A stretch of 64,000 nucleotides of DNA from Haladaptatus litoreus (GCF_900156425.1 NZ_FTNO01000006.1:124001-188000); one strand, 5' to 3'. Shown: positions 4,236-23,619, numbered from the stretch's first letter. Made by a program: numbers and translations. The notes: a model not told the origin generated them from the sequence alone.

Positions 4236-5276
4236 ATGTATCTCAACACCCCGGACGAAATCGACCACGAACGCGCCCATCACCAAGCGGTAATCCAAGG
4301 CTGCGATGACGTAGACGTCAAACGGATCGGGAACCTCGGTGAACTCGCGTTCGAACAGTTCTGCCGTGAATACCTTCCTGTCGAAATGTGGGAGTGGGAA
4401 AACGAAACAGCCATCCGGCGCTGTAATTCCGAGAGTTTCTCCGGCCACGACTTCGAGGTCTTCGGCTACAAAATCGACGTGAAAACATCACGGGATGTCT
4501 CTGCATTCCGGCCTGCGAACATCCTCGCAAACGACCCCGACGACGACATCATCGTCATGGTCTGGCATCGAGATAACGAAGATGCACTTATTCTCCTCGG
4601 CTGGGAGCGAACTGAAACGCTGAAATCGAAAGTCACGACGCAGGAAGCCTACTCGGGCGAGGAACCAGCGAAACTCGCACATCTTGCTGCTCGTCCGATG
4701 AATGAACTGCACGACCTGGGCCCGAACACCGCCCATCTGAACCAGAAGCCCGAAAACCCGTTCACGCCTGGCGACCGCGTGGTGAAAGCAGGTGACGAAG
4801 ACGGGTCGGTTGCAGTGGTCGTCGAGGTACTCCCCCCAGAAAAAAACACCACCGCTTACGGGCAGGAGATGGATGGCGAAGCGGTGAATGTTGCGTTCCC
4901 GAACATGCTCGATGAGGGGCCGGGTAATTGGCGCGAAATCCATCCTGCGAAGCTCGCCTCCTACTGTGATGACCAGGATATCAAGCTCTACACGTACAAG
5001 CATACGAATCTGGAGGTTGCCGAGAATCCGTTTACGCCAGGTGACTACGTTATCAAGCCCGATTACGATGACCCGGATTTGGCGGTGGTTCTCACAGTCG
5101 CTAAGGAAAAAGACGATGATCGGAACATCAATATCGCGTTTCTCCACCATCTTGAAGGAGAGGTCGGTGACAATGCGTATATGTCTCCAACTGATCTCGA
5201 GTCATTTTGCGACGAGTCTGGTATCAAGTCGTACTCGTACAACTATGCCGAATTATGTTTTGAGCATCAATTTTAA
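4236..5276 (+). CDS. PD-(D/E)XK nuclease-like protein with duplicated C-terminal domain
   Basis: The first 150 or so residues look like a restriction-endonuclease fold: NLGELAFEQF (E36), GHDFEVFGYKIDVKTS (D72, D81-x-K83), with Mrr/PD-(D/E)XK spacing. The rest is two copies of a domain of about 85 residues, each starting NPFTPGD and having a hydrophobic VVVEVLP or VVLTVAK strand, a V(N)AF strand and a closing SYC/SFCD, then KLYTY or KSYSY. The repeats may be small beta-barrel reader or binding modules. The gene stands alone between a wHTH relic and the McrB-like gene, 109 bases upstream of the latter. A modification-dependent or stand-alone nuclease is inferred from fold and position. A frameshifted relic of the repeated domain lies at 12635-13002. 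Confidence 0.65.
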   Translation: MYLNTPDEIDHERAHHQAVIQGCDDVDVKRIGNLGELAFEQFCREYLPVEMWEWENETAIRRCNSESFSGHDFEVFGYKIDVKTSRDVSAFRPANILANDPDDDIIVMVWHRDNEDALILLGWERTETLKSKVTTQEAYSGEEPAKLAHLAARPMNELHDLGPNTAHLNQKPENPFTPGDRVVKAGDEDGSVAVVVEVLPPEKNTTAYGQEMDGEAVNVAFPNMLDEGPGNWREIHPAKLASYCDDQDIKLYTYKHTNLEVAENPFTPGDYVIKPDYDDPDLAVVLTVAKEKDDDRNINIAFLHHLEGEVGDNAYMSPTDLESFCDESGIKSYSYNYAELCFEHQF

Positions 5277-5385: not shown

Positions 5386-8052
5386 ATGACGAAGCTCTAT
5401 TTTCATCCAGTTAACGACCACTGGCTTCCTCACTTCGAGCGAACCGTCGAAACACCACTTAACCTATCTGAAGCAGTAGGATTGCCTGCTGAATTAGAGC
5501 ATCTCGACAAAGCACGCGTCTGGGGGACGACGTATGAAATCAAAAAGGAACGCTACCACGAGGATATCGAACCAGAAGATCTCGTTCTCTTCTCGCAAGA
5601 TGGCCGATTTTTCGCTGCAGGGCGTATCCAACACGCATTCCGAAGTCGAGAATTCGGAGAGTGGGCGTGGGATAATGCAGATAGCGAACTCGTATATACA
5701 CTCATAGACTTCGAAGAAATGTCAATCCCAACAAATGCCATCACAGACCTGCTCGGCTATAGTGGTGGGTACAGAGTTCAGGGATTTACACGACCCACCA
5801 GTGAACGACTACAAAAATTACGTTCAGAATTCGGGTCTCTTGACAAGGCATTAAAAGCCCTCAAGACAGAGTACACTCCAACCAGCGTCGATGGGGGACA
5901 GGAGACGCTCGTCAGTGAATACGATACGCAGACAACCACCAAAGATCCACTCGATGACGACCCTATCACAGAGACTGCCCCGTACTACTGGGTAAACCAA
6001 AGCCACGAAGAACTCGAGGCGGGATATCTCCAAGCTCCTCGAACCAGCTTTCCGAACTACGACCTCCAGAAGCTCGAAATCGAGGATATCGTTTTTAATT
6101 ATGTTGACGGCGAAGTCGTTGGTTACTCGGAGGTCACTAAACCAGCCTATCTCGTCGCAGATGAGAATGAAGAGAAACGACGAGTAGACATCGACGTCCA
6201 TCCCTTCGATACCCCTCTCCAGTTCGTCGATGTCTTTCCCTACCTCTGGCGAGAAGATGTTCGACTCGAGAAGTACTACCCGATCAATCGAGCGGGCGTC
6301 AATCAGCAGTATCTGTTCAATTTGAGCAAAAAAGCGGGGGACTATCTCCTCGAGAAAGGCAACGAGGAAGAACCACTCTCCAACCCCGACCACCACCTCA
6401 TCACACACCTCCAAAACACGCCCCACTCCGTCTACAAGGTCACCTCACCACCAGATTACTGGCTGACGGCATACGAACACGCTGCTGTGGGCTTAGAGGA
6501 CAACGACCGACCGTCCTGGTCAGATATCGAAGCTGGCGACGTTCTTATTTTCCACTCACGGGAAAGTCCAAGTCGAAACGAACTCGCCGATCAGGGTAGT
6601 TGCATTCTCGGTGCTGGTATCGTCCGAGCAAAAACGACCAAACCTGAAGACGAAGCATGGTGGCACGACGAACACAAAACCGGGTCAGACGGCAAGAAAC
6701 ACTCCAACCTCATTACCTTCGAACGGCTGTACCTTGCTGGTGATTTCGACGCCATCGATCACACACAGCCCTTGACAGCAAAAGCACCCTCGACAATCGA
6801 CAACGATCTCGAAGCTCTCACCGCAAATGCTCTCGATATCGCCGAAGCAGACTACCTCTGCAACCAAGTCGCTGACAGTGACTTTCCCCAGAACCACACT
6901 ATCGAACCACTCGAGACATCCGATAACCATGCCAAAGCACTCGCGCTAGCAGATGCACTCGCTGACCACCTCGAAGAAGTCCCACCAGTTGCCCTGCATA
7001 AATCCTTCAATGGAGATATCGCCAACAACACTCTTGATGGTCTCTACTTCCCAAACAACCAGGGCGAAGCCATCCTCGCCCAAATCGAAGGCGCGCTTCG
7101 CTCCGGAAAACACATCGTCTTCACTGGCCCACCAGGAACAGGCAAGACCGAAATCGCTCGGCGAGTCGCCGATTACCTCGCAGCGTATTACCCCTATCTC
7201 TACACCGGCTCACAACTGACGACCGCGACCTCTGACTGGTCTACCTTCGATACCGTGGGTGGTTACATGCCCACTGAAGACGACACTGACTCGGGTAACA
7301 ACCTCGAGTTCACACCTGGACTCGTTCTCAATCGCTTCAAATCCAGGAAAACGAATACCCAGAAGAACGACTCACTCGTTATCGACGAACTCAATCGCGC
7401 CGATATCGACAAAGCATTTGGCCAACTGTTCACAGTGCTCTCCGGACAGTCCGTCCAACTCCCATACACCAAGGATGGTGAGGAAGTCAACCTCGCACCA
7501 GCCAATAGAAACGCCCTCTCACAACCACACGAATACCGAATCCCAGAATCATGGACGCTGTTTGCGACGCTCAACACTTACGACAAAACCTCCCTCTACG
7601 AGATGAGCTACGCATTCATGCGGCGCTTTGCATTCATTCGTGTCCCTGAACCTGACCTTGTAGACCTCAATGACAGCGACCTCCGCCCACTTCTCAACGA
7701 GTACATGGACGCGTGGGGAGTCCACACGATCGATTTCGACGTCGACCACTCTAAACCCTTGCTGGACGTTGGACACGTTTGGCAGGCGGCTAACGGCGCT
7801 ATCGACGACCGTGCTATTGGTCCCGCGGTCGTCAAAGACATCATCGCCTACCTCACCGAAACAACCGGTCTCGAGTGGGAACAAAGACTCACACAGGCTG
7901 TTATCAGCTACATCCTGCCACAACTCGAAGGCGTCCCGAAGCGCAAACAGGTGGTCACCGAACTCGCAGCAGTCGATCGAATCGACAGTCAACTGCTCGA
8001 TACTGCAGCCCGTGATATGCTCCAAGTAAGCATCATCAAGAGCGATGGATAG
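5386..8052 (+). CDS. McrB-like AAA+ NTPase with three EVE/PUA-like modules
   Basis: This 888-residue protein begins with three modules that resemble EVE/PUA-type modified-base readers: about 1-130 (ARVWGTTYE, DLVLFSQDGRFFAAGRI), about 200-310 (YYWVNQSHEEL) and about 345-470 (VYKVTSPPDYWLTAYEHAA, GDVLIFHSRE). The AAA+ motor follows, with Walker A GPPGTGKTE near 581-589, Walker B LVIDELNRAD near 664, and the McrB-type TLNTYD with an arginine-rich MRRFAFI sensor near 730-745. McrB proteins form hexameric motors that use GTP to activate an McrC-type nuclease at modified DNA. The next gene overlaps it by 8 nt, so the pair is cotranscribed. The triple reader differs from the single N-terminal DNA-binding domain of E. 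coli McrB, so the recognised base cannot be predicted. Confidence 0.85.
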   Translation: MTKLYFHPVNDHWLPHFERTVETPLNLSEAVGLPAELEHLDKARVWGTTYEIKKERYHEDIEPEDLVLFSQDGRFFAAGRIQHAFRSREFGEWAWDNADSELVYTLIDFEEMSIPTNAITDLLGYSGGYRVQGFTRPTSERLQKLRSEFGSLDKALKALKTEYTPTSVDGGQETLVSEYDTQTTTKDPLDDDPITETAPYYWVNQSHEELEAGYLQAPRTSFPNYDLQKLEIEDIVFNYVDGEVVGYSEVTKPAYLVADENEEKRRVDIDVHPFDTPLQFVDVFPYLWREDVRLEKYYPINRAGVNQQYLFNLSKKAGDYLLEKGNEEEPLSNPDHHLITHLQNTPHSVYKVTSPPDYWLTAYEHAAVGLEDNDRPSWSDIEAGDVLIFHSRESPSRNELADQGSCILGAGIVRAKTTKPEDEAWWHDEHKTGSDGKKHSNLITFERLYLAGDFDAIDHTQPLTAKAPSTIDNDLEALTANALDIAEADYLCNQVADSDFPQNHTIEPLETSDNHAKALALADALADHLEEVPPVALHKSFNGDIANNTLDGLYFPNNQGEAILAQIEGALRSGKHIVFTGPPGTGKTEIARRVADYLAAYYPYLYTGSQLTTATSDWSTFDTVGGYMPTEDDTDSGNNLEFTPGLVLNRFKSRKTNTQKNDSLVIDELNRADIDKAFGQLFTVLSGQSVQLPYTKDGEEVNLAPANRNALSQPHEYRIPESWTLFATLNTYDKTSLYEMSYAFMRRFAFIRVPEPDLVDLNDSDLRPLLNEYMDAWGVHTIDFDVDHSKPLLDVGHVWQAANGAIDDRAIGPAVVKDIIAYLTETTGLEWEQRLTQAVISYILPQLEGVPKRKQVVTELAAVDRIDSQLLDTAARDMLQVSIIKSDG

Positions 8053-9394
8053 AGACGATCTCCTCGATCAGCTGACTGAGGACATCCTCGCCTACGTCAT
8101 GCACGGGGCGTTCCCAGAGCGGGAGTTCGCTAACGCGATCAAACCCGACGCACTTGACGAGCGTTTCACCGAATATGAGCTCTTGCTGGATCTCCACTTC
8201 ATCCTCTCGCCAAGCGTGATTGAATTCGTCGAGCAACTTCCTCAACGCGTTCGGAACCTCCAGACCGACACCGAGTCGATCACCCGGACGAGACGGGGGA
8301 CGATCGATGGGAAGATCAACTGGAGTGCCACCATCAAACAGCGCTACGCACAGAATCCCGGTGATCGGTCTGTCTTCGTCTGCGATAATCGAACCGAGGA
8401 TTACGACACTGACGAAAATCTCGTGTTCAAGCGCGTCGTTGCCATCATCTACGAGACGCTTCGTGAGGCAGACGAGTATCTCCAGAAGGAATATGCGTGG
8501 GTGAACGACCGCTGGGATGCAACGCTCGTCAACCATCTCCGACGAATAGTAGAACAGAACGTCCACGTGCGTCGGATCCGAAAGCCGAAAGCATACGAAC
8601 CAACTGATCGGATGGTCAATACCGCATCCGAATCACGCCATCCTATCTACCGTGATGCTGCAGCGCTGCTCGAACAGCGCCGCCGGTTGTTCGAGGGTGA
8701 CCGCGAGCAACTTGAGACACTGCTCACCGAAACGGCGATTACACCCGATGACGACGAAACCCTGCTCGAACTCTTCGTTCTCTTTCGCTTTATCGCAACC
8801 CTCGAAGAACTCCACGAGACGAACGCACAGTTTGAGACGATCAAAACCGGCCGCCAAGAGGTCGCCCAACTCACGAACGATGATGGAACTGAAATCGCGG
8901 TCTATCACGACAACTCCGCTTCGAAGCGCGGTCTCTCCTTCCGAGCGTTTCCGGATGATCAAGACGACCTCTCTCGAACTGAGAAAGTGCACACGACCGG
9001 TTTCGACATTGCGAACGATTACTTCCAAGATCGCAATTTCCAAACGCACACTGGTCGGCCCGATATCATCGTTCTCGAAATTACCCACCCCGATGGTGAG
9101 CACGACTACCTCATCACCGAGGTCAAAAACAGCACGAACACGAAAACGATTCGACAAGGAATCAAAGAGACGCTCGAGTACCTTGCGTTTCTCCAGCAGG
9201 ACGACAAATTCGTTTACGATGATAGAGAATCCACGGGAGAGTATTTCGGTGATGGATGGAACGGGCTCTTAGTCATTCAAGATCTCGTGGAAGAGACTGC
9301 CTCACTCGACGATCAGCAAGACAACGAAATCAAAATTTTGCAAGCATCCGAAATTGAACGAGAACTTGCGGACGCCCTCAAGCGATTCTTTTGA
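8045..9394 (+). CDS. McrC-like restriction nuclease subunit
   Basis: This 449-residue protein is the nuclease partner of the McrB-like motor it overlaps by 8 nt. The N-terminal half has features of McrC/DUF2357-like proteins: a region with LPQRVRNL, then RRGTIDGKINWSATIKQR and YDTDENLVFKRV. The C-terminal half carries a PD-(D/E)XK core, GRPDIIVLEI near 337-346 and DYLITEVKNS near 352-361, the acidic residue and E-x-K triad. The extreme C-terminus (DEQ/DDQQDNEIKILQA, ending ELADALKRFF) reappears as an isolated relic at 15575-15706. Expected role: cutting DNA that carries the modification read by the McrB-like subunit. Confidence 0.8.
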   Translation: MDRDDLLDQLTEDILAYVMHGAFPEREFANAIKPDALDERFTEYELLLDLHFILSPSVIEFVEQLPQRVRNLQTDTESITRTRRGTIDGKINWSATIKQRYAQNPGDRSVFVCDNRTEDYDTDENLVFKRVVAIIYETLREADEYLQKEYAWVNDRWDATLVNHLRRIVEQNVHVRRIRKPKAYEPTDRMVNTASESRHPIYRDAAALLEQRRRLFEGDREQLETLLTETAITPDDDETLLELFVLFRFIATLEELHETNAQFETIKTGRQEVAQLTNDDGTEIAVYHDNSASKRGLSFRAFPDDQDDLSRTEKVHTTGFDIANDYFQDRNFQTHTGRPDIIVLEITHPDGEHDYLITEVKNSTNTKTIRQGIKETLEYLAFLQQDDKFVYDDRESTGEYFGDGWNGLLVIQDLVEETASLDDQQDNEIKILQASEIERELADALKRFF

Positions 9395-9443
9395 TTCTCA
9401 GATAATTATATACACATCCTGTTACAATAATACTCTCACTTGT

Positions 9444-10286
9444 ATGAATCAGAATCGAGTGACGGCAGTTGCAGAAGCCTTAGCTGCACTCGGCCATGAT
9501 GGAATCGCTGCATTCGACCGTACGGAACCAGAATACGATACGCTCACAACCCTCTACGATGAGTACGACGACGAAACGTACGTCAAGTTACTCGGCATCG
9601 TCACTACGACTGAAGATTTTCAATTGAACGGCAACGCACAACGCTTTTGGAAGAAGCTCACAGAGGTCGCGCTTGACCACGGCGAGTTAGCGTCCATTCA
9701 GGACGTAGAAGGGATCATGGATGCCTTCATGAGTGCCTCCGTGAATGCCCGATTCAACAGCATGAAACGAGGTCGACTAACTACACTGTTCAACTCGGGG
9801 TTCCCACAATGGTTCGTCGAAAATCATCGCACTGTAGCTCCAGTCACAGTCTGGAACGAACTTGCCTATGGCCTAAATAACGAGCGACACAAGAAGACGG
9901 TTGTCCTCTCGATGAAGATCTTCGACATTGCGCATCTGATTCGTCACGGCGAGTACCTAGAATTCCCCCACGATATTCCGATCCCATGTGATCTTCAAGT
10001 GGAACGAGTCTCCCGAACGTCTGGCATCATCAATACTGATAAAACTACGAATATTCTCGAAGCTTGGGCCGAAGTAATGGCTTTAACAAGTGAATTATTG
10101 AACGAACATATCTCACTCCTTCGAATCGACTCGATCGTTTGGCAAGCAGGACAAATAATCGGCAAAGAGGAACCAGACCAGAGTGCAGCGAGAGAAGCAC
10201 TAATAAGTCACTTCAAATCCGTCGGCATCGGTAGATCTGAACGAACTCGGCTGGCAGATGAACTCACTGCAGCAATGGTAGAATAA
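9444..10286 (+). CDS. AGOG-like 8-oxoguanine DNA glycosylase/lyase
   Basis: This 280-residue protein matches the archaeal AGOG family of bifunctional DNA glycosylases (helix-hairpin-helix superfamily). The diagnostic region reads HKKTVVLSMKIFDIAHL, then DIPIPCDLQV: a lysine (about 151) followed 32 residues later by aspartate (about 183). From memory, that is the spacing of the catalytic Lys and Asp of Pyrobaculum AGOG (K140, D172). I chose ATG 9444; the open frame extends further upstream but would overlap the McrC-like gene. It starts 49 bases after the nuclease gene on the same strand. The normal role is excision of 8-oxoguanine. A role in restricting modified invader DNA is suggested only by the position. 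Confidence 0.7.
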   Translation: MNQNRVTAVAEALAALGHDGIAAFDRTEPEYDTLTTLYDEYDDETYVKLLGIVTTTEDFQLNGNAQRFWKKLTEVALDHGELASIQDVEGIMDAFMSASVNARFNSMKRGRLTTLFNSGFPQWFVENHRTVAPVTVWNELAYGLNNERHKKTVVLSMKIFDIAHLIRHGEYLEFPHDIPIPCDLQVERVSRTSGIINTDKTTNILEAWAEVMALTSELLNEHISLLRIDSIVWQAGQIIGKEEPDQSAAREALISHFKSVGIGRSERTRLADELTAAMVE

Positions 10287-12162: not shown

Positions 12163-12627
12163 ATGAGAATTCTTGGGGTCGTCCATGGTGGTAGCACTCA
12201 ACAGAACGAAAAACTACCTGCCCGAGTGCAGTACAAGTCCGGTTATTATGGTCTCAAAGCCGAATATGCTGAGAAATGCTGTGATGATTGGGTCATCATT
12301 TCTGAAAAGCATGGTATAATTTCTCCAGAAAAAGAGATAAAACCGTATAATACTCATATAGACGATCTTAGCGGTCTAAATCTCCAAAACTGGAGGAAAG
12401 AAGTCCAAACAGGGATTGATCAAACACTCTTTGACAAAGATGGTTCTCTCCAATTTGACAAAATGGTCTTCCTCGCTAGTGGAAATTTTATTAAAAAAAT
12501 CGAGCCAGTAATAAAGCAAACGAAGTCATATAATGTCGAGGTTGAGTCACCATTACCCGATCAAGGTCGTATTGGATATCAGCAACAATGGCTACGAAAT
12601 CAGATTGATCGCACACGAAGAGCCTAG
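12163..12627 (+). CDS. DUF6884-like protein
   Basis: This 154-residue protein opens with a beta strand and glycine-rich turn (MRILGVVHGGSTQQNEKLPA), followed by WVIISEKHGIISPEKEIKPY and a closing strand (FDKMVFLASGNF). This is the pattern of DUF6884 proteins, which are distantly like YaaA and queuosine-type transglycosylase helper domains and are common in phages, plasmids and defence islands. The biochemical role is unknown. The gene is monocistronic, with its own TATA palindrome, and is AT-rich compared with neighbouring genes. Confidence 0.55.
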   Translation: MRILGVVHGGSTQQNEKLPARVQYKSGYYGLKAEYAEKCCDDWVIISEKHGIISPEKEIKPYNTHIDDLSGLNLQNWRKEVQTGIDQTLFDKDGSLQFDKMVFLASGNFIKKIEPVIKQTKSYNVEVESPLPDQGRIGYQQQWLRNQIDRTRRA

Positions 12628-12634
12628 TTCGGAA

Positions 12635-13002
12635 TCATATACTGACTCCATTCCCTGGAACTTCAACTACGACTGCAGGATCAAGATTGTCGTGTGAAGT
12701 CTTGATAACGTACTCACTAAGCATGAACATCTGCTATGCAAACACACAATTTGTGTTCGTAGACGTGTAGCGTGTGGTCTCTTGGTAGTACGATATGACG
12801 CTAACAATGCCGGATGAATTTCACACCAATCGTTTGATCCTCCATCAAGACTCCCAAGGAACGCTACACTGACCGCCTTACTGTCTATCGATTGCCCATA
12901 GAGATTCACATTTTTCTCTAGTGGCAGTACCTCGACGACGAATGGCACCTCTGTCTCGTCATCACCACTGTTCACAATTCGATTACCGGACGAGAATGAA
13001 TT
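12635..13002 (-). pseudogene. Frameshifted relic of the NPFTPGD repeat domain
   Basis: On the minus strand the frame NSFSSGNRIVNSGDDET, FVVEVLPLEKNVNLYGQSID and DWCEIHPALLASY aligns with the first C-terminal repeat of the protein at 4236-5276. After LLASY the match moves to another frame (DQETTRYTSTNTNCVFA), then shifts again (FMLSEYVIKTSHDNLDPAVV), matching the start of the second repeat. It stops at a TGA at 12637-12635. No nuclease-like domain remains. It is a decayed paralogue or displaced copy. Confidence 0.6.
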
Positions 13003-15096: not shown

Positions 15097-15564
15097 ATGT
15101 CCCAACTTTGGCTTATCCCCGTAGATGAGCAGTCCTTCCAGCGGACGCTTGATCAACCAATCGATCTGAGTGACCGAGACGAGAAACCGGAGCGCTTTCC
15201 TGACCGAACTCGAGTGTGGGGCGTGCGGACTGATCAGGAGCAGGGCGATTGGAAACGAAACCGCCGTAATCTTGAGCGAATGGAGACAGGCGACCCACTG
15301 CTGGTGTATCGAAACGAAACGAGTCAGTACCACGCGAAAGGACGAATCGGTGAATTCTGGCAGACGGAATACGTTCGTGATGAATACTGGGGTGGTGGTC
15401 CAGCAATAGATGTCTTCTCTGTCGATCAGTACGAAGAGATAGACGTGCAACCAAACGAAGTCAATACAGTTCTAGATTACAACGAGCGATTTTGGCCGCA
15501 GGGACTCTGGCGTGTTGCGGATGATCGACCGACTGATCGACTCGTCCAAAAACTCGATATCTGA
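15097..15564 (+). CDS. EVE/PUA-like reader domain, truncated McrB N-terminus
   Basis: This 155-residue protein aligns with the first module of the McrB-like protein at 5386: MSQLWLIPVDEQSFQRTLDQ, TRVWGVRTDQEQ, DPLLVYRNETSQYHAKGRIG. It ends in RPTDRLVQKLDI where the longer protein continues RPTSERLQKL. Directly behind it lies the C-terminal tail of an McrC-like gene. The simplest reading is that this is the 5' stump of a second EVE-McrB gene left by an internal deletion. It could still be expressed as a stand-alone modified-base-binding protein, since the module is complete and has its own ATG. Confidence 0.6.
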   Translation: MSQLWLIPVDEQSFQRTLDQPIDLSDRDEKPERFPDRTRVWGVRTDQEQGDWKRNRRNLERMETGDPLLVYRNETSQYHAKGRIGEFWQTEYVRDEYWGGGPAIDVFSVDQYEEIDVQPNEVNTVLDYNERFWPQGLWRVADDRPTDRLVQKLDI

Positions 15565-15574
15565 TACTCTTGAC

Positions 15575-15706
15575 CGAAGTATTCTCGTTACTGGTGACTC
15601 TGAGGAGACTACACCACTCGACGAACAGCAGAACAACGAAATCAAAATTCTACAAGCTTTCGAGATTGAGACCGAGCTTACAGACATCTTAGAGAAGTTT
15701 TTCTAG
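15575..15706 (+). pseudogene. C-terminal tail of a lost McrC-like gene
   Basis: The frame encodes ILVTGDSEETTPLDEQQNNE followed by IKILQAFEIETELTDILEKF, ending at TAG 15704-15706. This is nearly collinear with the last 40 residues of the McrC-like protein ending at 9394 (ASLDDQQDNEIKILQASEIE). No nuclease core is present. With the EVE stump at 15097 it brackets a deletion that removed the AAA+ motor and the nuclease domain. Confidence 0.7.
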
Positions 15707-15777
15707 TATTATAATCTAATATTACTTATCCTAGGGTAGTCAGTGCCTTCATTAGGTTCCGTTGATGTGATAGTGAT

Positions 15778-18543
15778 ATGTCTGAGTGGCGTGAAACGAT
15801 TCGTGCTGAAGTTGATCTCTACTGCCAGCAAAACAGTACTCAGGAGTTCGAACTACAGAGCTTTCTCGAATTTTCTCGACCGACGATTCGAGAGCAATTT
15901 CCGAAGAACAATAACTGGGAGGCAGCAGTTCGGGGAACACTGCAAGAATTACGTGACAGAGATGAGATTGAGTTTCTCAGCAACGGACGATATCGAGTCA
16001 GAAAAGAGAAATCATCACCGTCTGTATGGATTGAGAAGACCCAGGTGACAGACCGGCCATACAAGCAAGACGGAGAGTTACAGCTTGGTCGTGCAATTAT
16101 GGCACCTAGCCGAGATACCGGTGGTGGCAAGCGGTATGAAGCACTTCGTGATGCCGATGTCGGCGATATTGTGGTTCATTACCTTCAAGACAAACAGACG
16201 ATCGTCGGCGTTTCTACAATCGAGTCTGAATTAGAGGAGGACTTCGACGGGCCACCGACTGGTCGCTGGACTGAGAGGCAAGAACAAGAGGGTGGGTATC
16301 TACGGTGGCTCACAAATTATCAGGAACTCGACTCTCCAATCGCTATTTACGACGATATCCTCCATAATCCTGTATTTGAAGACCGGCTCCGGCAGATCCG
16401 CGAAGAGGAAGAGAAGATTCTGTATAGTAAAAATCTTTCAATCAATCAGGGTCACTACTTTACGAGATGCCCCAGTGACCTCGTTGAGATCCTTGCGGAA
16501 GCCTCGTCAGATCTTGCTGACCAATTGGCAGATCGAGGTGTCGAAGGGGTTGTCGACCAATCAACCGAGCCAGCGGATTCATACGATGGAATTGTTTCGG
16601 CTACAGAAGACATTCGAAGTCGTCTCGAACAACAAACAGGGGAACAGAATTGGCTTGGTGAACAGGTCGCCGAGACGATTGTCGCAGATTGGACCGAGGC
16701 ACTCCGACGAAGTAACCTAATCAAAGGCAAAGTCACTGGAGCGGACGCCGTTAAATGCGACCAGATCATCCAGCTCTACGAAGACAATACTAACCGATTG
16801 GCTGAACAAGCAGCAACGATTGGCTCAGCAACAATTCAAAAGTCGAACCTCTCTGCGGATCAAGTGTTGTTTACCGTCCTCCTTCGTGACCTCCAAGAGG
16901 AGATCGTTGGCACGTCGAACATGAACCACGTGAAGTTCGACAAACTCCTCAAAGCCGTTCATAGAGGTGCGCAGGAGAGTGAGGAACTTCCATCGGTTGC
17001 TGAACAACCCGCGAATACAGAAACGATCACGCGCCAACTACAACGTGCAAAACAGGTCGTCTTCTACGGGCCACCTGGAACCGGCAAGACGTATACCGCA
17101 CGGCAATTCGCTCGCTGGTGGCTCCACCAACACTCCCCACAATCCCCAACCACTGACCAGCTTGAAGTCGTAACGTTCCATCCGTCGTTCTCTTACGAAG
17201 ATTTCATTGAAGGTCTAACCGCCGAGGCGAACGATGGCGCTGTCGAATACCGCATTGAGGAGGGCGTGTTCAAACGGATCTGCCAGCGTGCACAGACCGC
17301 ATATGACTATGCGAACCAGCAGGAAGACACTGGCGAAGCACCACCCTACGTACTGATTATCGACGAGATTAACCGCGGGAATCTCGCTCAAATCTTCGGT
17401 GAAGTCATCACTCTTCTCGAGGCAGACAAACGCGGAAACTTCGAAATCGAGCTCGCACACTCCGGTGAGTCGTTCACCATCCCGCCGAATCTCTACGTCA
17501 TCGGCACGATGAACACGGCTGATCAATCTATCGCACTGGTCGACACTGCACTTCGCCGTCGGTTTCGGTTCATCGACTTCCCACCAGATCTCGATATCAT
17601 CTTCCAGCAGTACGAAACAGAATCACCCGACGCACAGGTCGCTGTCACTGGCCACTCAAGTGGAATCACCCGCCGGGAACGACTCTTGGGAGCGAGCGTA
17701 CTCGCAACCTACGAACTCAACGAACGCATCCTCAACGCACCACAGCTTGGCAAAGGCAAACAACTCGGCCACACATACTTCCTCAACCACAATTCATCCG
17801 ACGACATCGTCGATGCGTGGCGATACGACATTCTCCCGCAACTCGAAGAATACTACTTCGGACAGTTCGACCGTCTCCGCGATGAACTCCTCAACGAAAC
17901 CGACACCCGCCTGATCGACTGGGAGACTGAACGGATTCAATCATTCGACGCCCAGGCACTCTATTCAGCTCTCTGTGATCTCGCCGGCGCTGAGAACCCG
18001 GCCTTACTCGTCGATGCAATGCAAGCCATGCCGGACGGAAACGGAACAGGAGCCATACAAAGACAACCAGACGATGCATGGGCTGCTGGAGACCGAACAC
18101 CAGACACATTCCGCGAGCGAATACAATCTACCCTTGATGATGACTCGGTAGAAAGTATGGTTCGTGTCCTTGATGCCGGCGAAGAATTCGGGTTTCTTGA
18201 TGCCGGGCGGGGCGACGGGGCATCGATAATGCTGAAGTCCGACTCAGTAGATCCTCGTGTTGGAATTATCAAACTCTCACAGGACGGTAAAATCGACTTC
18301 CGGTGGAATTGGCTTCTCGATGTGGATACGAATTCACTCACCCGCAAATTCATCGAAGATGCCTCGCGTGTCTTCACCGACGTCAGTGGCTACAAGCATC
18401 GATGGGACCCCAGTATGAGAGAAAACGGTGGATTCGTGGAACCACGATTCGATGTGGGTGACCTCTCTGACCAGGATATCACAGCCTTAATCGAGGGTCT
18501 TCGGTCGTTCACCGAACGGGCGGCAACGTTCCAGCATGACTGA
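15778..18543 (+). CDS. mcrB: McrB-like restriction NTPase (second system)
   Basis: This 921-residue protein has an N-terminal winged-helix-like module (about 1-80: VRGTLQELRDRDEIEFLSNG) like those fused to many restriction NTPases, then an EVE-like region (about 85-230) and a helical linker. The AAA+ motor has Walker A YGPPGTGKTYT near 430, Walker B LIIDEINRGN near 526, and the McrB hallmark GTMNTADQS with LRRRFRFI near 575-595. A C-terminal domain (about 790-921) is of unknown fold. It overlaps the McrC gene by 8 nt. Role: motor subunit of a type IV, modification-dependent restriction system. It is distinct in sequence from the triple-EVE McrB-like protein 8 kb upstream. Confidence 0.88.
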   Translation: MSEWRETIRAEVDLYCQQNSTQEFELQSFLEFSRPTIREQFPKNNNWEAAVRGTLQELRDRDEIEFLSNGRYRVRKEKSSPSVWIEKTQVTDRPYKQDGELQLGRAIMAPSRDTGGGKRYEALRDADVGDIVVHYLQDKQTIVGVSTIESELEEDFDGPPTGRWTERQEQEGGYLRWLTNYQELDSPIAIYDDILHNPVFEDRLRQIREEEEKILYSKNLSINQGHYFTRCPSDLVEILAEASSDLADQLADRGVEGVVDQSTEPADSYDGIVSATEDIRSRLEQQTGEQNWLGEQVAETIVADWTEALRRSNLIKGKVTGADAVKCDQIIQLYEDNTNRLAEQAATIGSATIQKSNLSADQVLFTVLLRDLQEEIVGTSNMNHVKFDKLLKAVHRGAQESEELPSVAEQPANTETITRQLQRAKQVVFYGPPGTGKTYTARQFARWWLHQHSPQSPTTDQLEVVTFHPSFSYEDFIEGLTAEANDGAVEYRIEEGVFKRICQRAQTAYDYANQQEDTGEAPPYVLIIDEINRGNLAQIFGEVITLLEADKRGNFEIELAHSGESFTIPPNLYVIGTMNTADQSIALVDTALRRRFRFIDFPPDLDIIFQQYETESPDAQVAVTGHSSGITRRERLLGASVLATYELNERILNAPQLGKGKQLGHTYFLNHNSSDDIVDAWRYDILPQLEEYYFGQFDRLRDELLNETDTRLIDWETERIQSFDAQALYSALCDLAGAENPALLVDAMQAMPDGNGTGAIQRQPDDAWAAGDRTPDTFRERIQSTLDDDSVESMVRVLDAGEEFGFLDAGRGDGASIMLKSDSVDPRVGIIKLSQDGKIDFRWNWLLDVDTNSLTRKFIEDASRVFTDVSGYKHRWDPSMRENGGFVEPRFDVGDLSDQDITALIEGLRSFTERAATFQHD

Positions 18544-19831
18544 GATCACACCGGTTGGGTATCTCGGTCCACCAATCAACCGAACAGATGCAGGCGAGAC
18601 AGTTCCACCGTCAGATCCTATCTCGCTCGAAGAACACGATCGCACTGACCCCTTCGAGATCAGCCGAGAAGATGCAGTCTTCTTGGAATCACTCGAAGAA
18701 CGATGTCGAGCGAACCCATTGAACATCTCGTTTACCAGCGACGGCAAAGCGATTATCAAAACCAGCAGTCACGTTGGCGTCCTCACGCTGCCGAGTGGCG
18801 TCCAAATCGAGGTCACACCCAAACAGACGGTGACACGCCTTCTGTGGGCGCTCAAATACGCGTTCGACACCCCCGTGGATTCACTTGAATTCGAGACCGA
18901 ATTCACCGGTGCATCGTCCTTTTTCGATGCGATCGGCGTCCTCTTTCAGGCCGAGCTCCAGTCCGTGCTTGCGCAAGGACTTCATAGAGAATACGTTCGA
19001 ACACACTCAGTCCGCGACCACGTCCAGGGTCGGATCGACGTCCAGCGACAACTTCAACGGCCGGCAGCTGTCACAACCGACTTTGCAGCCACTCACGACG
19101 ATTTCACTGCAGATAATCTCCTGAATCAGGCTGTTCTCGCAGCAACTCGTATCCTTGTGACGCTTGTACGCGACAGCAGGCTCTCAAGCCGACTGCATTA
19201 TCAAGAACAACGCCTTCGAGAGTTTGTGTCCGTCGAAAACGTCTCTCCGAGAGACGTCGATAGAATTGAGCTCTCACGATTGAACGACCACTACGAGGCC
19301 CTCCTCGGGCTCACACATCTCGTCCTCGACCGAGAGTTCTTCGATGACGTGCGCGCCGGTGATCGTCGATCCTTGGCGCTGTTCGTCAATATGAACGACG
19401 TATTCGAACGCATCGTCGAACGGGCGTTCACTGCAGCAGCACAGGAACTCGGGGATTTCACCGTCGAAGGACAGGCATCGATTCCAAACGTGGTTGAAGG
19501 ACCGCATGCAGTTTCGATGCGACCAGACGTCTTCGTTACTCGGAGCGATGGCACACCCGTACTGGTAGTTGACGCCAAGTGGAAGACAGGATCGGCGTCG
19601 TCCAGTGATGTCTATCAGCTTACGTCGTACATCCTCGCACTCGAAGTGTCGGGAGTACTCATCTATCCCGGTCGAGATGATCGGATCGCAGAGGAATCCC
19701 GAGTAATGAATGAGTATCGTCTTCGCTCCGGTGCGTTGGCCACGAACGCAGCCGTCGAGTCCTATGATGACTACGCTGCAGCGATCGAATCGAGTGCACT
19801 CCAATTCTTGAAGGAATCAGCCAAACAATAG
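18536..19831 (+). CDS. mcrC: McrC restriction nuclease subunit (second system)
   Basis: This 431-residue protein has the typical McrC layout: an N-terminal beta-rich region (about 1-110) followed by VRDHVQGRIDVQRQL, a helical middle with MNDVFERIVERAF near 285-300, and a C-terminal PD-(D/E)XK core, SMRPDVFVTRSDGTPVLVVD followed by AKWK (about 325-350), then DVYQLTSYI. The D...D-x-K triad is intact. Translation is coupled to McrB by an 8-nt overlap. The McrC subunit cleaves DNA when the McrB motor translocates to it. Confidence 0.88.
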   Translation: MTEITPVGYLGPPINRTDAGETVPPSDPISLEEHDRTDPFEISREDAVFLESLEERCRANPLNISFTSDGKAIIKTSSHVGVLTLPSGVQIEVTPKQTVTRLLWALKYAFDTPVDSLEFETEFTGASSFFDAIGVLFQAELQSVLAQGLHREYVRTHSVRDHVQGRIDVQRQLQRPAAVTTDFAATHDDFTADNLLNQAVLAATRILVTLVRDSRLSSRLHYQEQRLREFVSVENVSPRDVDRIELSRLNDHYEALLGLTHLVLDREFFDDVRAGDRRSLALFVNMNDVFERIVERAFTAAAQELGDFTVEGQASIPNVVEGPHAVSMRPDVFVTRSDGTPVLVVDAKWKTGSASSSDVYQLTSYILALEVSGVLIYPGRDDRIAEESRVMNEYRLRSGALATNAAVESYDDYAAAIESSALQFLKESAKQ

Positions 19832-21030: not shown

Positions 21031-23619
21031 GTGTCAATTACACGGTCGAAATCGATTACAACTATCTATGAAGAATGCAAGGATTTTGACCTTGTCCTCG
21101 TACCTGATGCCCCTCTCGCAAGCGCAATCAACCGCCGCCTTGACCGTCCACAATTCGGATCATTCGCAATCACCCCCCGCCGCCTTGCAGCAAAACGCCG
21201 AGAACAAGCTGAAGACCGACTCGCCTTTCTCCAACTAATTACCGAGACAGACCTCGAGTGGAAAGAGGCCGCCTATGCCGTCGAAAACATCCTCGCATGC
21301 TGGGAATTCCGCGGTCATATCGATGCCATTCTGGAATACGACGCGTTCGCAACCGATACCATCCGAACAGCGGTCGACGCCATTGCCGAGATGGACACCA
21401 CAGTTCAGCGACTCACTGAGTACTCCATCGATGAAGACAAATCGGTCGCGGTTGTCGGTGAAAAACAACTCACGGAACTCGAACGCTCGATCCTCCCACC
21501 GGAATATACCACAATTGACCCCTTCACAGACGAATCGTTCGACCAACCTCCCTTCCATGTGCTCGACTCACCGGCTGCGATCATCGATACCGTTCTCGAG
21601 ACGATCACCGCAGAGAATGCCGAGAATATCGCAGTCGTCCACGATCGAACGAGCGAGTACGGTTCGCTCATTCGGTCAGCTCTCGAAGCTGCAGAGATTC
21701 CCTATTATGGCGGGCTCGGATTCACCGATGAACCACATCATAGAGCCTTCTTACAGCTCCTCCGAAGTGCCCACGCTGGTCGTGATACTCGTGTCGGCGA
21801 GATCAAACCCCTACTCACTCAATTGGAGATCTCAATCGACCTGGAACATGACGAAAAACGTCTCTCCCATTTCGACAATCCAGCAATAGACTGGTTTCTT
21901 GATTTCAGCAACTCGATTAGCACCTATACATTCGAGGACGCGATCGAAGTCTACGAAGATGCTACGGATAGCCAGCTCACTATATTCCGAGACGAACTCT
22001 CGCAACTCGGCATCGAGAACGAGTTTGTCACCGAGGGTGCACTCGATCGACTCGAATTCTATCTTCAATCCTATGATGTACCTGTTGATCACGAGAATGA
22101 GGGTGTGCTACTCGCCGATGCCACATCCGCTGCATATGTAGATCGGCCACTCGTATTCTATCTGGGGCTTGATGAGCGGTGGACACACTCGACACCACAC
22201 CGACCTTGGGTTGATCGCGAGCAGTATTTCGAACAGAATATCCGACAGTTCCAACTTCTCCTTCAAAATGGGCAAGACCAATACTACCTCGTTCAAGATT
22301 CCGCTGGTGGCACACCGGTCACACCGTGCCTGTACTTCGAGGAACTACTGGATGAGAAGTTCGAGCGATTCAGTGATCTTGACTCAATGTCACACGCACG
22401 AGCAACCCGGCCAACCCAGGATGGCTTCAAGAAAGAGTCCAACAACGCACCCACCAAAGAAATCGAGGCGATCAGCCAATCGAGTTTGAATACCTACGTC
22501 AATAGTCCACGGGACTATTTCTACAGCCGCCTTGTCCAGACGCCCGATAAGGAGCATTTCAAAGAAGGCAATATGTTCCACGATTTCGCGGAGTTCTACG
22601 TCAACCATCCCGACCAGATTACGCCAAGTACACTCGATGAGATTGCAATCATCATTCTTGAAGAGATGAAACCCTACCTTCGGAGCGTCGATCACAATGT
22701 TCGACGTACGAAGTACCGGATCGGACTGGAAACCATTACCGACTACCTCGATACCAATCCACTACAAACGGACGCGTTTCTCACACCTGATGGTGGCTAC
22801 GGTCAAAATCACTTTGCGGAGTATTTCGACAAGCCAGTCCAGTCTCCTTACACCGAACAATGGTTCGAAAACACTGACCTAGGAGTGAAAGGGAAGATCG
22901 ACCTTGTTCACGGCCCGACCCAGCTGCTCGATTACAAGAGCGGGTCGAAGAACTCCCCCAAGGATATCGTCAAAAATTCAGATATCGAATCACCCACAGA
23001 CAGACCGAATTTCCAGGCACTCCTCTACCTCACCCAGCAGAGAAGCGAACACCCCGACCAACAACTCCAGTTCACATTCTTCCATTTCCTCGAGACACTC
23101 GATGATGTCGTCACTGGCAATGCGAACATCGACGACTGTCTCACGACGGTGACGTATTATCCGACAACGCACGAGGAGTACATCGCGACGGAAGTCATTT
23201 TCACTGAACTGCAAGAAGAAGCATATGGCGACTGCAAAAAGACGTTCTCGAAGATCGACTACGGTACCTACCAGGCGTTCCTCGACGAACACGACTTCCC
23301 CACCACGAGAGACAAGAACGAGCTCATCGAATCCGAGTTCGGCCACGCTCTCACTGACCGGATGGTGGACGCCGTTGGTGACTACAAGTACGTCAAAAAT
23401 GGCTGTAAACAGGCGCTCAAATACCTGCTCGGCATCAGAAACCGGAACTACTTCGCCGAGGATCTCGATGCGTTCGAGACATACGTCCAGGACCGACTCA
23501 CGGAACTCACCGATCGGCATAACGGTGGGGAACGCTTCCCCGTCGAAGGCCCTGGCGAGGAACCAAACTACCGATACGTGGATCACCGTGACTGCATTCT
23601 GGAGGAGGGATCACGATGA
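21031..23619 (+). CDS. AddB-like nuclease subunit
   Basis: This 862-residue protein starts at GTG 21031. The N-terminal half looks like a degenerate helicase scaffold with no Walker A (FDLVLVPDAPLASAINRRLD), as in AddB. The C-terminal third has RecB-family nuclease motifs: ISQSSLNTYVNSPRDYFYSR near 475, GNMFHDFAEFYV, GVKGKIDLVHG near 619, LLDYKSGSK near 631 and FQALLYLTQQ. The cysteine that in many AddB proteins precedes the nuclease domain and ligates an iron-sulfur cluster is replaced here (NSPRDYF). The stop overlaps the ATG of the helicase gene by 4 nt. The inferred complex processes DNA ends or degrades linear foreign DNA. These proteins are well known in bacteria and less studied in haloarchaea. 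Confidence 0.7.
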   Translation: MSITRSKSITTIYEECKDFDLVLVPDAPLASAINRRLDRPQFGSFAITPRRLAAKRREQAEDRLAFLQLITETDLEWKEAAYAVENILACWEFRGHIDAILEYDAFATDTIRTAVDAIAEMDTTVQRLTEYSIDEDKSVAVVGEKQLTELERSILPPEYTTIDPFTDESFDQPPFHVLDSPAAIIDTVLETITAENAENIAVVHDRTSEYGSLIRSALEAAEIPYYGGLGFTDEPHHRAFLQLLRSAHAGRDTRVGEIKPLLTQLEISIDLEHDEKRLSHFDNPAIDWFLDFSNSISTYTFEDAIEVYEDATDSQLTIFRDELSQLGIENEFVTEGALDRLEFYLQSYDVPVDHENEGVLLADATSAAYVDRPLVFYLGLDERWTHSTPHRPWVDREQYFEQNIRQFQLLLQNGQDQYYLVQDSAGGTPVTPCLYFEELLDEKFERFSDLDSMSHARATRPTQDGFKKESNNAPTKEIEAISQSSLNTYVNSPRDYFYSRLVQTPDKEHFKEGNMFHDFAEFYVNHPDQITPSTLDEIAIIILEEMKPYLRSVDHNVRRTKYRIGLETITDYLDTNPLQTDAFLTPDGGYGQNHFAEYFDKPVQSPYTEQWFENTDLGVKGKIDLVHGPTQLLDYKSGSKNSPKDIVKNSDIESPTDRPNFQALLYLTQQRSEHPDQQLQFTFFHFLETLDDVVTGNANIDDCLTTVTYYPTTHEEYIATEVIFTELQEEAYGDCKKTFSKIDYGTYQAFLDEHDFPTTRDKNELIESEFGHALTDRMVDAVGDYKYVKNGCKQALKYLLGIRNRNYFAEDLDAFETYVQDRLTELTDRHNGGERFPVEGPGEEPNYRYVDHRDCILEEGSR

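What the first reader, a model, noticed from the sequence alone, without database searches (positions are those of the whole stretch)
5386..10286. EVE-rich McrB/McrC-like pair followed by an AGOG DNA glycosylase
Three same-strand genes in tight order combine a modified-base reader with three EVE/PUA-like modules, a PD-(D/E)XK nuclease and an 8-oxoguanine-type glycosylase/lyase. A glycosylase could turn recognised modified bases into abasic sites or nicks, giving a two-step attack on base-modified viral DNA. I know of no described system with this composition.
Basis: partly seen in the sequence, partly recalled or inferred. Interest (0 to 1): 0.72.

Follow-up and report, generated by a model that had tools for sequence, protein, structure and literature searches.

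The report
McrBC beside a variant DNA glycosylase
A salt-loving archaeon carries an ordinary kind of modified-DNA restriction pair next to an unusual DNA-repair-type enzyme; across relatives the pair does not travel with that enzyme, whose conserved partner is instead a small YaaA-like DNA-base protein, suggesting an undescribed base-removing module in archaea.

Summary
The three genes are real. McrB (5386-8052) and McrC (8045-9394) form a type IV-like restriction pair. AGOG (9444-10286) keeps the catalytic Lys and Asp. Of three proposed EVE modules, one is clear (matches the VcaM4I EVE chain, E=3e-7), one weak (TgMcrB-like) and one undetectable.

The proposed three-gene system is not conserved. 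All 20 fetched McrBC homologues lack AGOG. AGOG is rare (10 of 392 Halobacteria). Of ten other intact haloarchaeal AGOG loci, only one (G646) has an McrBC upstream, of another subtype and 247 bp away.

What AGOG does keep company with is DUF6884 (YaaA-like; DpdC superfamily). It is adjacent or nearby in 8 of 14 haloarchaeal loci (expected 0.04 for the first 12 scored), directly downstream in Archaeoglobi, and fused to AGOG in several genomes. In the window a divergent DUF6884 lies 1.9 kb downstream.

In all 21 divergent AGOG proteins compared, the Gln that reads the N7-H of 8-oxoguanine is Glu. The contacts to the rest of the guanine face are mostly kept.

Best reading: McrBC acts alone, and beside it sits a component of an undescribed AGOG-DUF6884 base-excision module, probably aimed at a modified guanine. 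Defence is likelier than housekeeping repair, but neither is shown.

The parts
5386..8052 (+). McrB-like protein (888 aa): three N-terminal modules plus AAA+ motor
   Evidence: Pfam AAA_5; weak NCBIfam PRK11331 McrB hit; motifs
5386..5889 (+). McrB module 1 (residues 1-168), fold unassigned, homologous to the standalone ORF 15097-15564
   Evidence: no PDB or Pfam hit; BLAST homology
5893..6381 (+). McrB module 2 (residues 170-332), EVE-like modified-base reader
   Evidence: profile hit to EVE-HNH endonuclease VcaM4I chain 6yex residues 2-138, E=3e-7; weak Pfam EVE in 2 of 5 members
6382..6915 (+). McrB module 3 (residues 333-510), possibly TgMcrB/YTH-like
   Evidence: best PDB hit TgMcrB N-terminal domain 6p0f, E=0.11; conserved in 17 homologues
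7111..7629 (+). McrB AAA+ NTPase domain (residues 576-748)
   Evidence: Pfam AAA_5; Walker A/B and LNTYDK
8045..9394 (+). McrC-like PD-(D/E)XK nuclease subunit (449 aa), overlaps McrB by 8 bp
   Evidence: invariant GRPD (nt 9053-9064) and E-x-K (nt 9119-9127) across 11 homologues; weak PDDEXK_9
9406..9412 (+). TTATATA, TATA-like element centred 35 bp before the AGOG ATG in a 49-bp, 29% G+C gap
   Evidence: promoter role is inference
9444..10286 (+). Divergent AGOG-family N-glycosylase/DNA lyase (280 aa); K151 and D183 catalytic; E30 in place of the 8-oxoG-reading Gln
   Evidence: PF09171 E=1.2e-25; alignments; model and fold search
12163..12627 (+). DUF6884 (YaaA-like) protein, 1.9 kb downstream; divergent from AGOG-linked DUF6884s (26-30%) and lacking the CxxxK motif
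   Evidence: PF21818 E=2e-21; alignment A2; adjacency of AGOG and DUF6884 elsewhere

Best explanation
Two neighbouring accessory units lie in a defence island. Unit 1, McrB-McrC, is a type IV-like modification-dependent restriction pair: reader modules flip and bind a modified base, the AAA+ motor translocates, and the PD-(D/E)XK subunit cuts; it works without the glycosylase. Unit 2 is the glycosylase, a divergent AGOG. Its normal partner across Halobacteria and Archaeoglobi is a DUF6884 (YaaA/DpdC-superfamily) protein. Together they would act as a base-excision module: DUF6884 binds or processes a flipped guanine-type base or its abasic product, and AGOG removes the base through the Lys151/Asp183 Schiff-base mechanism and can nick the strand. 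The target is a guanine changed at the N7/C7 edge, more likely in foreign DNA than routine 8-oxoguanine in the host. Shown by computation: the families, the catalytic residues, the Q-to-E change, the AGOG-DUF6884 linkage and fusions, and the lack of conserved McrBC linkage. Inferred: the substrate, the order of steps, and the defence role.
For: McrBC pairs are conserved without AGOG: 20 of 20 fetched homologues keep McrC next to McrB, 0 of 20 carry AGOG. AGOG is sporadic: 2 of 28 (family), 10 of 392 (class), 7 of 146, 2 of 171, with remnants in G074, G206 and G084, while the genome has five other HhH-GPD glycosylases. AGOG-DUF6884 proximity: 7 of 12 haloarchaeal places within 3 kb, expected 0.04, P about 1e-15, and still about 1e-6 if both are confined to 5% of the genome; G646, found later, adds another. 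In Archaeoglobi DUF6884 lies directly behind AGOG, with AGOG-DUF6884 fusions (PF24701+PF09171+PF21818 in one 554-aa ORF; L114 AGOG+YaaA). E30 replaces Pab-AGOG Gln24 in 21 of 21 divergent AGOGs, and Gln is kept in all five canonical ones; Gln24 reads the N7-H of 8-oxoG and its loss kills activity (PMC9638937). DUF6884 is linked to abasic-site binding (YfjM, PMC11701544) and weakly resembles DpdC, whose PF03883 family hydrolyses dPreQ0 in DNA (PMC12839542). Csa3-like HFX_2341/DUF6293 regulators neighbour it in both groups.
Against: In this window the DUF6884 is 1.9 kb away, divergent, lacks the CxxxK motif, and is separated by decayed DNA, so the pair may be broken here. Five haloarchaeal AGOG loci (L018, L019, L022, L025, L139) have no DUF6884 nearby, nor do three E-type AGOGs in other families (L116-L118). 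Glu could still accept the N7-H of 8-oxoguanine. The AGOG start is only 49 bp after McrC, so read-through transcription is possible. G646 is a second McrBC-AGOG neighbourhood. Only one EVE module is well supported.
Confidence: 0.6

Rival explanations
1. McrB, McrC and AGOG form one system: the EVE-bearing McrB recognises a modified base, AGOG excises it, McrC cuts.
For: Tight same-strand order with a 49-bp gap; a second haloarchaeal AGOG (G646) lies downstream of a different McrBC; DNA glycosylases do serve in phage defence (Brig1 and Brig3).
Against: 0 of 20 close McrBC homologues carry AGOG; other AGOG loci, apart from G646, lack McrB/C by tblastn; the pair's family is common (258 of 392 genomes with some match) while AGOG is rare; the G646 McrBC is a different subtype with a 247-bp gap. 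In crowded islands one such neighbour in ten other loci is not surprising (my estimate, not computed).
Confidence: 0.12
2. AGOG-DUF6884 is an accessory DNA-repair module for oxidised guanine (8-oxoG or similar) that spreads by gene transfer, not a defence system.
For: Catalytic residues and the guanine-face contacts K158, D229, P181 and W233 are mostly kept; E. coli YaaA acts in peroxide stress and YfjM binds abasic lesions (PMC11701544); Glu could accept an N7-H.
Against: Sporadic distribution, pseudogenes, placement in islands and on a plasmid; five other HhH-GPD glycosylases in the same genome; the 8-oxoG-reading Gln is replaced throughout; CARF-like regulators nearby.
Confidence: 0.27
3. 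AGOG here is a lone relic of a transferred island fragment with no current role.
For: Decayed DNA between AGOG and the DUF6884; an McrC remnant at 15602-15703 shows turnover of the island.
Against: An intact 280-aa frame with all catalytic residues and a high-confidence fold.
Confidence: 0.08

Closest known systems
McrBC type IV restriction systems with EVE/YTH reader domains (TgMcrB; EVE-McrB fusions, PMC7641849)
   Same: AAA+ McrB with N-terminal modified-base reader, overlapping McrC with PD-(D/E)XK motif; EVE-McrB reported in nearly 300 genera
   Different: Three stacked N-terminal modules; LNTYDK at the McrB signature position; scores far below the NCBIfam McrB cut-off
AGOG 8-oxoguanine DNA glycosylases (Pyrobaculum, Pyrococcus, Thermococcus)
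   Same: Fold, catalytic Lys/Asp and most guanine-face contacts
   Different: Glu30 for Gln24; Gln66 and Gln185 for the Glu59-Arg176 pair; Leu or Phe for Phe146; DUF6884 partner and fusions; sporadic accessory gene
Brig1/Brig3 anti-phage DNA glycosylases (PMC11078745, PMC13160076)
   Same: Would remove a modified base from foreign DNA, found in defence islands; Brig3 has a partner that edits the base first (BapA)
   Different: Brig proteins are uracil-DNA-glycosylase superfamily; this is HhH-GPD/AGOG with lyase chemistry
Dpd 7-deazaguanine DNA modification system (DpdC, PF03883/YaaA family)
   Same: DUF6884 is distantly related to YaaA/DpdC
   Different: Apart from a DpdC-like DUF6884, no DpdA/DpdB-type partner was identified at the AGOG loci (not searched for systematically); a glycosylase is the partner
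Base-excision restriction enzymes (R.PabI type, PMC10273834)
   Same: Restriction by base removal and abasic sites
   Different: Different fold; they remove unmodified bases in a recognition sequence

Membership tests
McrBC | AAA+ motor with Walker A/B and MNTxD-type signature | tested here: met
   GPPGTGKT, DELNRA, LNTYDK (MNTYDK in most homologues)
McrBC | McrC partner with PD-(D/E)XK motif in overlapping gene | tested here: met
   GRPD340, E359-x-K361 invariant; 8-bp overlap; pair kept in 20 of 20 homologous loci
McrBC | Score above curated NCBIfam McrB/McrC cut-offs | tested here: not met
   PRK11331 51.5 bits vs 637; no McrC family hit for the 449-aa protein; so McrBC-like, divergent subtype
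McrBC | GTP-dependent cleavage of modified DNA | not testable with these tools
   needs biochemistry
EVE domain | Sequence-profile match to EVE/PUA-fold readers, module 2 | tested here: met
   6yex E=3e-7
EVE domain | Same for module 3 | tested here: inconclusive
   TgMcrB 6p0f E=0.11
EVE domain | Same for module 1 | tested here: inconclusive
   no hit; single-sequence structure prediction failed, pLDDT 30
AGOG | Pfam PF09171 above cut-off and AGOG fold | tested here: met
   90.7 bits vs 26.1; nine significant Foldseek hits, all AGOG
AGOG | Catalytic Lys and Asp | tested here: met
   K151, D183 align with Pae K140 and D172
AGOG | Gln reading N7-H of 8-oxoguanine | tested here: not met
   Glu30; Glu in 21 of 21 divergent AGOGs compared
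AGOG | 8-oxoguanine excision | not testable with these tools
   needs enzyme assay; so it is AGOG-family by fold and catalysis, not shown to be an 8-oxoG enzyme
Brig-type defence glycosylase | Uracil-DNA-glycosylase superfamily | tested here: not met
   AGOG/HhH-GPD fold
AGOG-DUF6884 module (proposed here) | DUF6884 adjacent or fused to AGOG | tested here: inconclusive
   Met in many relatives; in the window DUF6884 is divergent and 1.9 kb away

The most novel reading that the evidence does not exclude
AGOG and DUF6884 form an undescribed archaeal base-excision restriction module that removes 7-substituted 7-deazaguanines (such as dPreQ1, about 30% of G in halovirus HVTV-1, PMC6884629) from viral DNA. 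Glu30 would pair with the charged C7 side chain, DUF6884 would edit or flip the base as DpdC does, and nucleases, in places McrBC, would finish the broken DNA.
Probability: 0.13. Interest if true: 0.88.

Novelty: new variant of a known kind. Interest (0 to 1): 0.55.

Why it matters
Defence by base excision is so far known from uracil-glycosylase-type Brig enzymes and from R.PabI-type enzymes. A conserved AGOG-DUF6884 module with a changed base-reading residue would extend it to the HhH-GPD superfamily and to archaea, would give DUF6884/YaaA proteins a testable role, and could be the host answer to deazaguanine-modified haloviruses. It also corrects a tempting three-gene reading built on one neighbourhood.

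Tried and rejected
AlphaFold on the McrB N-terminal 558 residues without relatives failed (pLDDT 30); profiles were used instead. Scans of viral contigs and phage records found no relative of this AGOG, so a viral gene is not indicated; one plasmid copy exists. The idea that AGOG is the cell's housekeeping 8-oxoG enzyme was dropped: most relatives lack it and five other HhH-GPD glycosylases are present. PADLOC, Pfam and NCBIfam do not list this McrBC or AGOG as a named defence system. DUF6884 vs PDB gave only spurious hits, plus YaaA at E=0.32. The small genes next to AGOG in L155, L017 and L105 look PD-(D/E)XK-like by motif, but Pfam and PDB searches gave nothing, so they are only noted. The best non-AGOG glycosylase-like structural neighbour is the queuosine glycosylase DUF2419 (7u1o, TM 0.48, E=2.2): a lead, not evidence.

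Full report
Observation. The window (G000 contig 8, bases 124001-188000) encodes, on one strand, an 888-aa McrB-like AAA+ protein (5386-8052), a 449-aa McrC-like protein (8045-9394, 8-bp overlap) and a 280-aa AGOG-family protein whose natural start is ATG 9444. Pfam gives AAA_5 for the first and PF09171 AGOG (E=1.2e-25) for the third. The second shows only a weak PD-(D/E)XK match by profile, but its GRPD and E-x-K motifs are invariant in 11 aligned homologues. The AGOG model (pLDDT 91) matches solved AGOG structures and nothing else significantly.

Reader modules. Profiles of the three N-terminal McrB segments were searched against the PDB. Residues 170-332 hit the EVE-HNH endonuclease VcaM4I (6yex, E=3e-7; PMC7897488). 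Residues 333-510 hit the TgMcrB N-terminal domain best but weakly (E=0.11). Residues 1-168 hit nothing. So 'EVE-rich' is partly right. Modules 1 and 2 are shared at about 50% identity with an McrB whose motor is only 39% identical (L100), which shows module shuffling.

Is it one operon system? Close McrBC homologues were fetched from 20 loci: every one keeps McrC next to McrB, and none carries AGOG. McrB-family matches occur in 258 of 392 Halobacteria genomes, AGOG in 10 of 392, 2 of 28 of the own family, 7 of 146 and 2 of 171 of two other families. A tblastn of McrB and McrC against AGOG neighbourhoods found McrB only at G646. There an McrB of another subtype (MrcB_N domain) and an McrC-like gene lie 247 bp upstream of an operon AGOG / putative nuclease / DUF6884. 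In the window a TTATATA lies 35 bp before the AGOG ATG in a 49-bp, 29% G+C gap, which would suit a near-leaderless haloarchaeal promoter (inference).

The real partner. DUF6884 (PF21818, YaaA-like) lies next to AGOG in haloarchaea: overlapping by 4 bp in L016, 6 bp away in convergent orientation in L017, next in L020 (with a residue of the G646 nuclease between) and L155, 2.7 kb away in L021, and beside AGOG remnants in L023 and at G084. For the first 12 haloarchaeal places, 7 lie within 3 kb against 0.04 expected (P about 1e-15; about 1e-6 if both genes are confined to 5% of the genome). Two separate gene-fusion architectures and long-range conservation are strong evidence of functional coupling. 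A Csa3/CARF-like regulator (HFX_2341/DUF6293) is a second recurrent neighbour; HFX_2341 itself represses cas genes in Haloferax (PMC11434293). In the window, DUF6884 (12163-12627) is 1.9 kb downstream, only 26-30% identical to the AGOG-linked type, and lacks the CxxxK motif, so the local pair may be rebuilt or broken.

Residues. Mapped on Pab- and Pae-AGOG, the catalytic Lys and Asp are K151 and D183. The contacts to O6, N1 and N2 of guanine (Pab K149, D208, P172, W212) are kept as K158, D229, P181 and W233 (Phe in L025). Gln24, which reads the N7-H of 8-oxoG and whose replacement in Pae-AGOG abolishes activity (PMC9638937), is Glu in all 21 divergent AGOGs compared and Gln in the five canonical ones. 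In the haloarchaeal clade the Glu59-Arg176 phosphate clamp is also changed to Gln66-Gln185 (His in one). The tree separates canonical from divergent AGOGs on a long branch, and haloarchaeal from Archaeoglobi-type ones. This predicts a guanine-derived substrate altered at the N7/C7 edge. 8-oxoG is not excluded, because Glu can also accept an N7-H.

Mechanism. Shown here: families, motifs, linkage, fusions and distribution. Inferred: AGOG excises the base by Schiff-base chemistry and may nick; DUF6884 flips, binds or edits the base, by analogy with YfjM (abasic binder, PMC11701544) and DpdC (dPreQ0 hydrolysis, PMC12839542), to which DUF6884 is weakly similar. Haloviruses do carry such bases: HVTV-1 has dPreQ1 at about 30% of G (PMC6884629). 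Sporadic occurrence, remnants, a plasmid copy and five other HhH-GPD glycosylases in the genome argue for an accessory, probably defensive, role.

Known or new. Base-excision defence is known (Brig1 and Brig3, UDG superfamily; R.PabI-type enzymes, PMC10273834). The held library has only two papers that mention DUF6884, and the EVE survey does not mention glycosylases; no description of an AGOG-DUF6884 pair was found, which is not proof of absence because most subscription journals are not held. I rate it a new variant of a known kind. The McrBC pair by itself is an ordinary, divergent member of a known kind.

Noticed in passing
window 15097-19831: A second McrBC-type cluster: standalone module-1-like ORF (15097-15564), McrB2 with DpnI_C winged helix (15778-18543) and McrC2 (18536-19831).
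   Followed up: partly
window 15602-15703: Remnant of an McrC of the first type (34 aa, 71% identical) between the two, a sign of island turnover.
   Followed up: no
window 4236-5276 and 12667-12975: The 346-aa protein upstream of McrB has a 56%-identical fragment downstream on the other strand, flanking the McrBC-AGOG-DUF6884 stretch; possible duplication at the ends of an inserted segment.
   Followed up: no
window 21031-26486: AddAB-like pair: PD-(D/E)XK protein and UvrD helicase-nuclease.
   Followed up: no
   Followed up: partly
L025:3915-10842: AGOG 107 bp downstream of a 1990-aa TmtA-like defence protein.
   Followed up: no
L103:6601-8667: An McrC followed by a DUF6884-like ORF (28% to the window's DUF6884), without AGOG.
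   Followed up: no
L134:7-2202: Large haloarchaeal TGT-like proteins (open frame about 970 aa) carry a C-terminal YaaA/DpdC-like domain (CSGSK, ISAGFG).
   Followed up: no
L106:2655-3377, L108:3801-4370, L109:9199-9954: A third gene without Pfam match follows DUF6884 in several Archaeoglobi-like loci, beginning with a Cys/His-rich FCxHGK motif.
   Followed up: no
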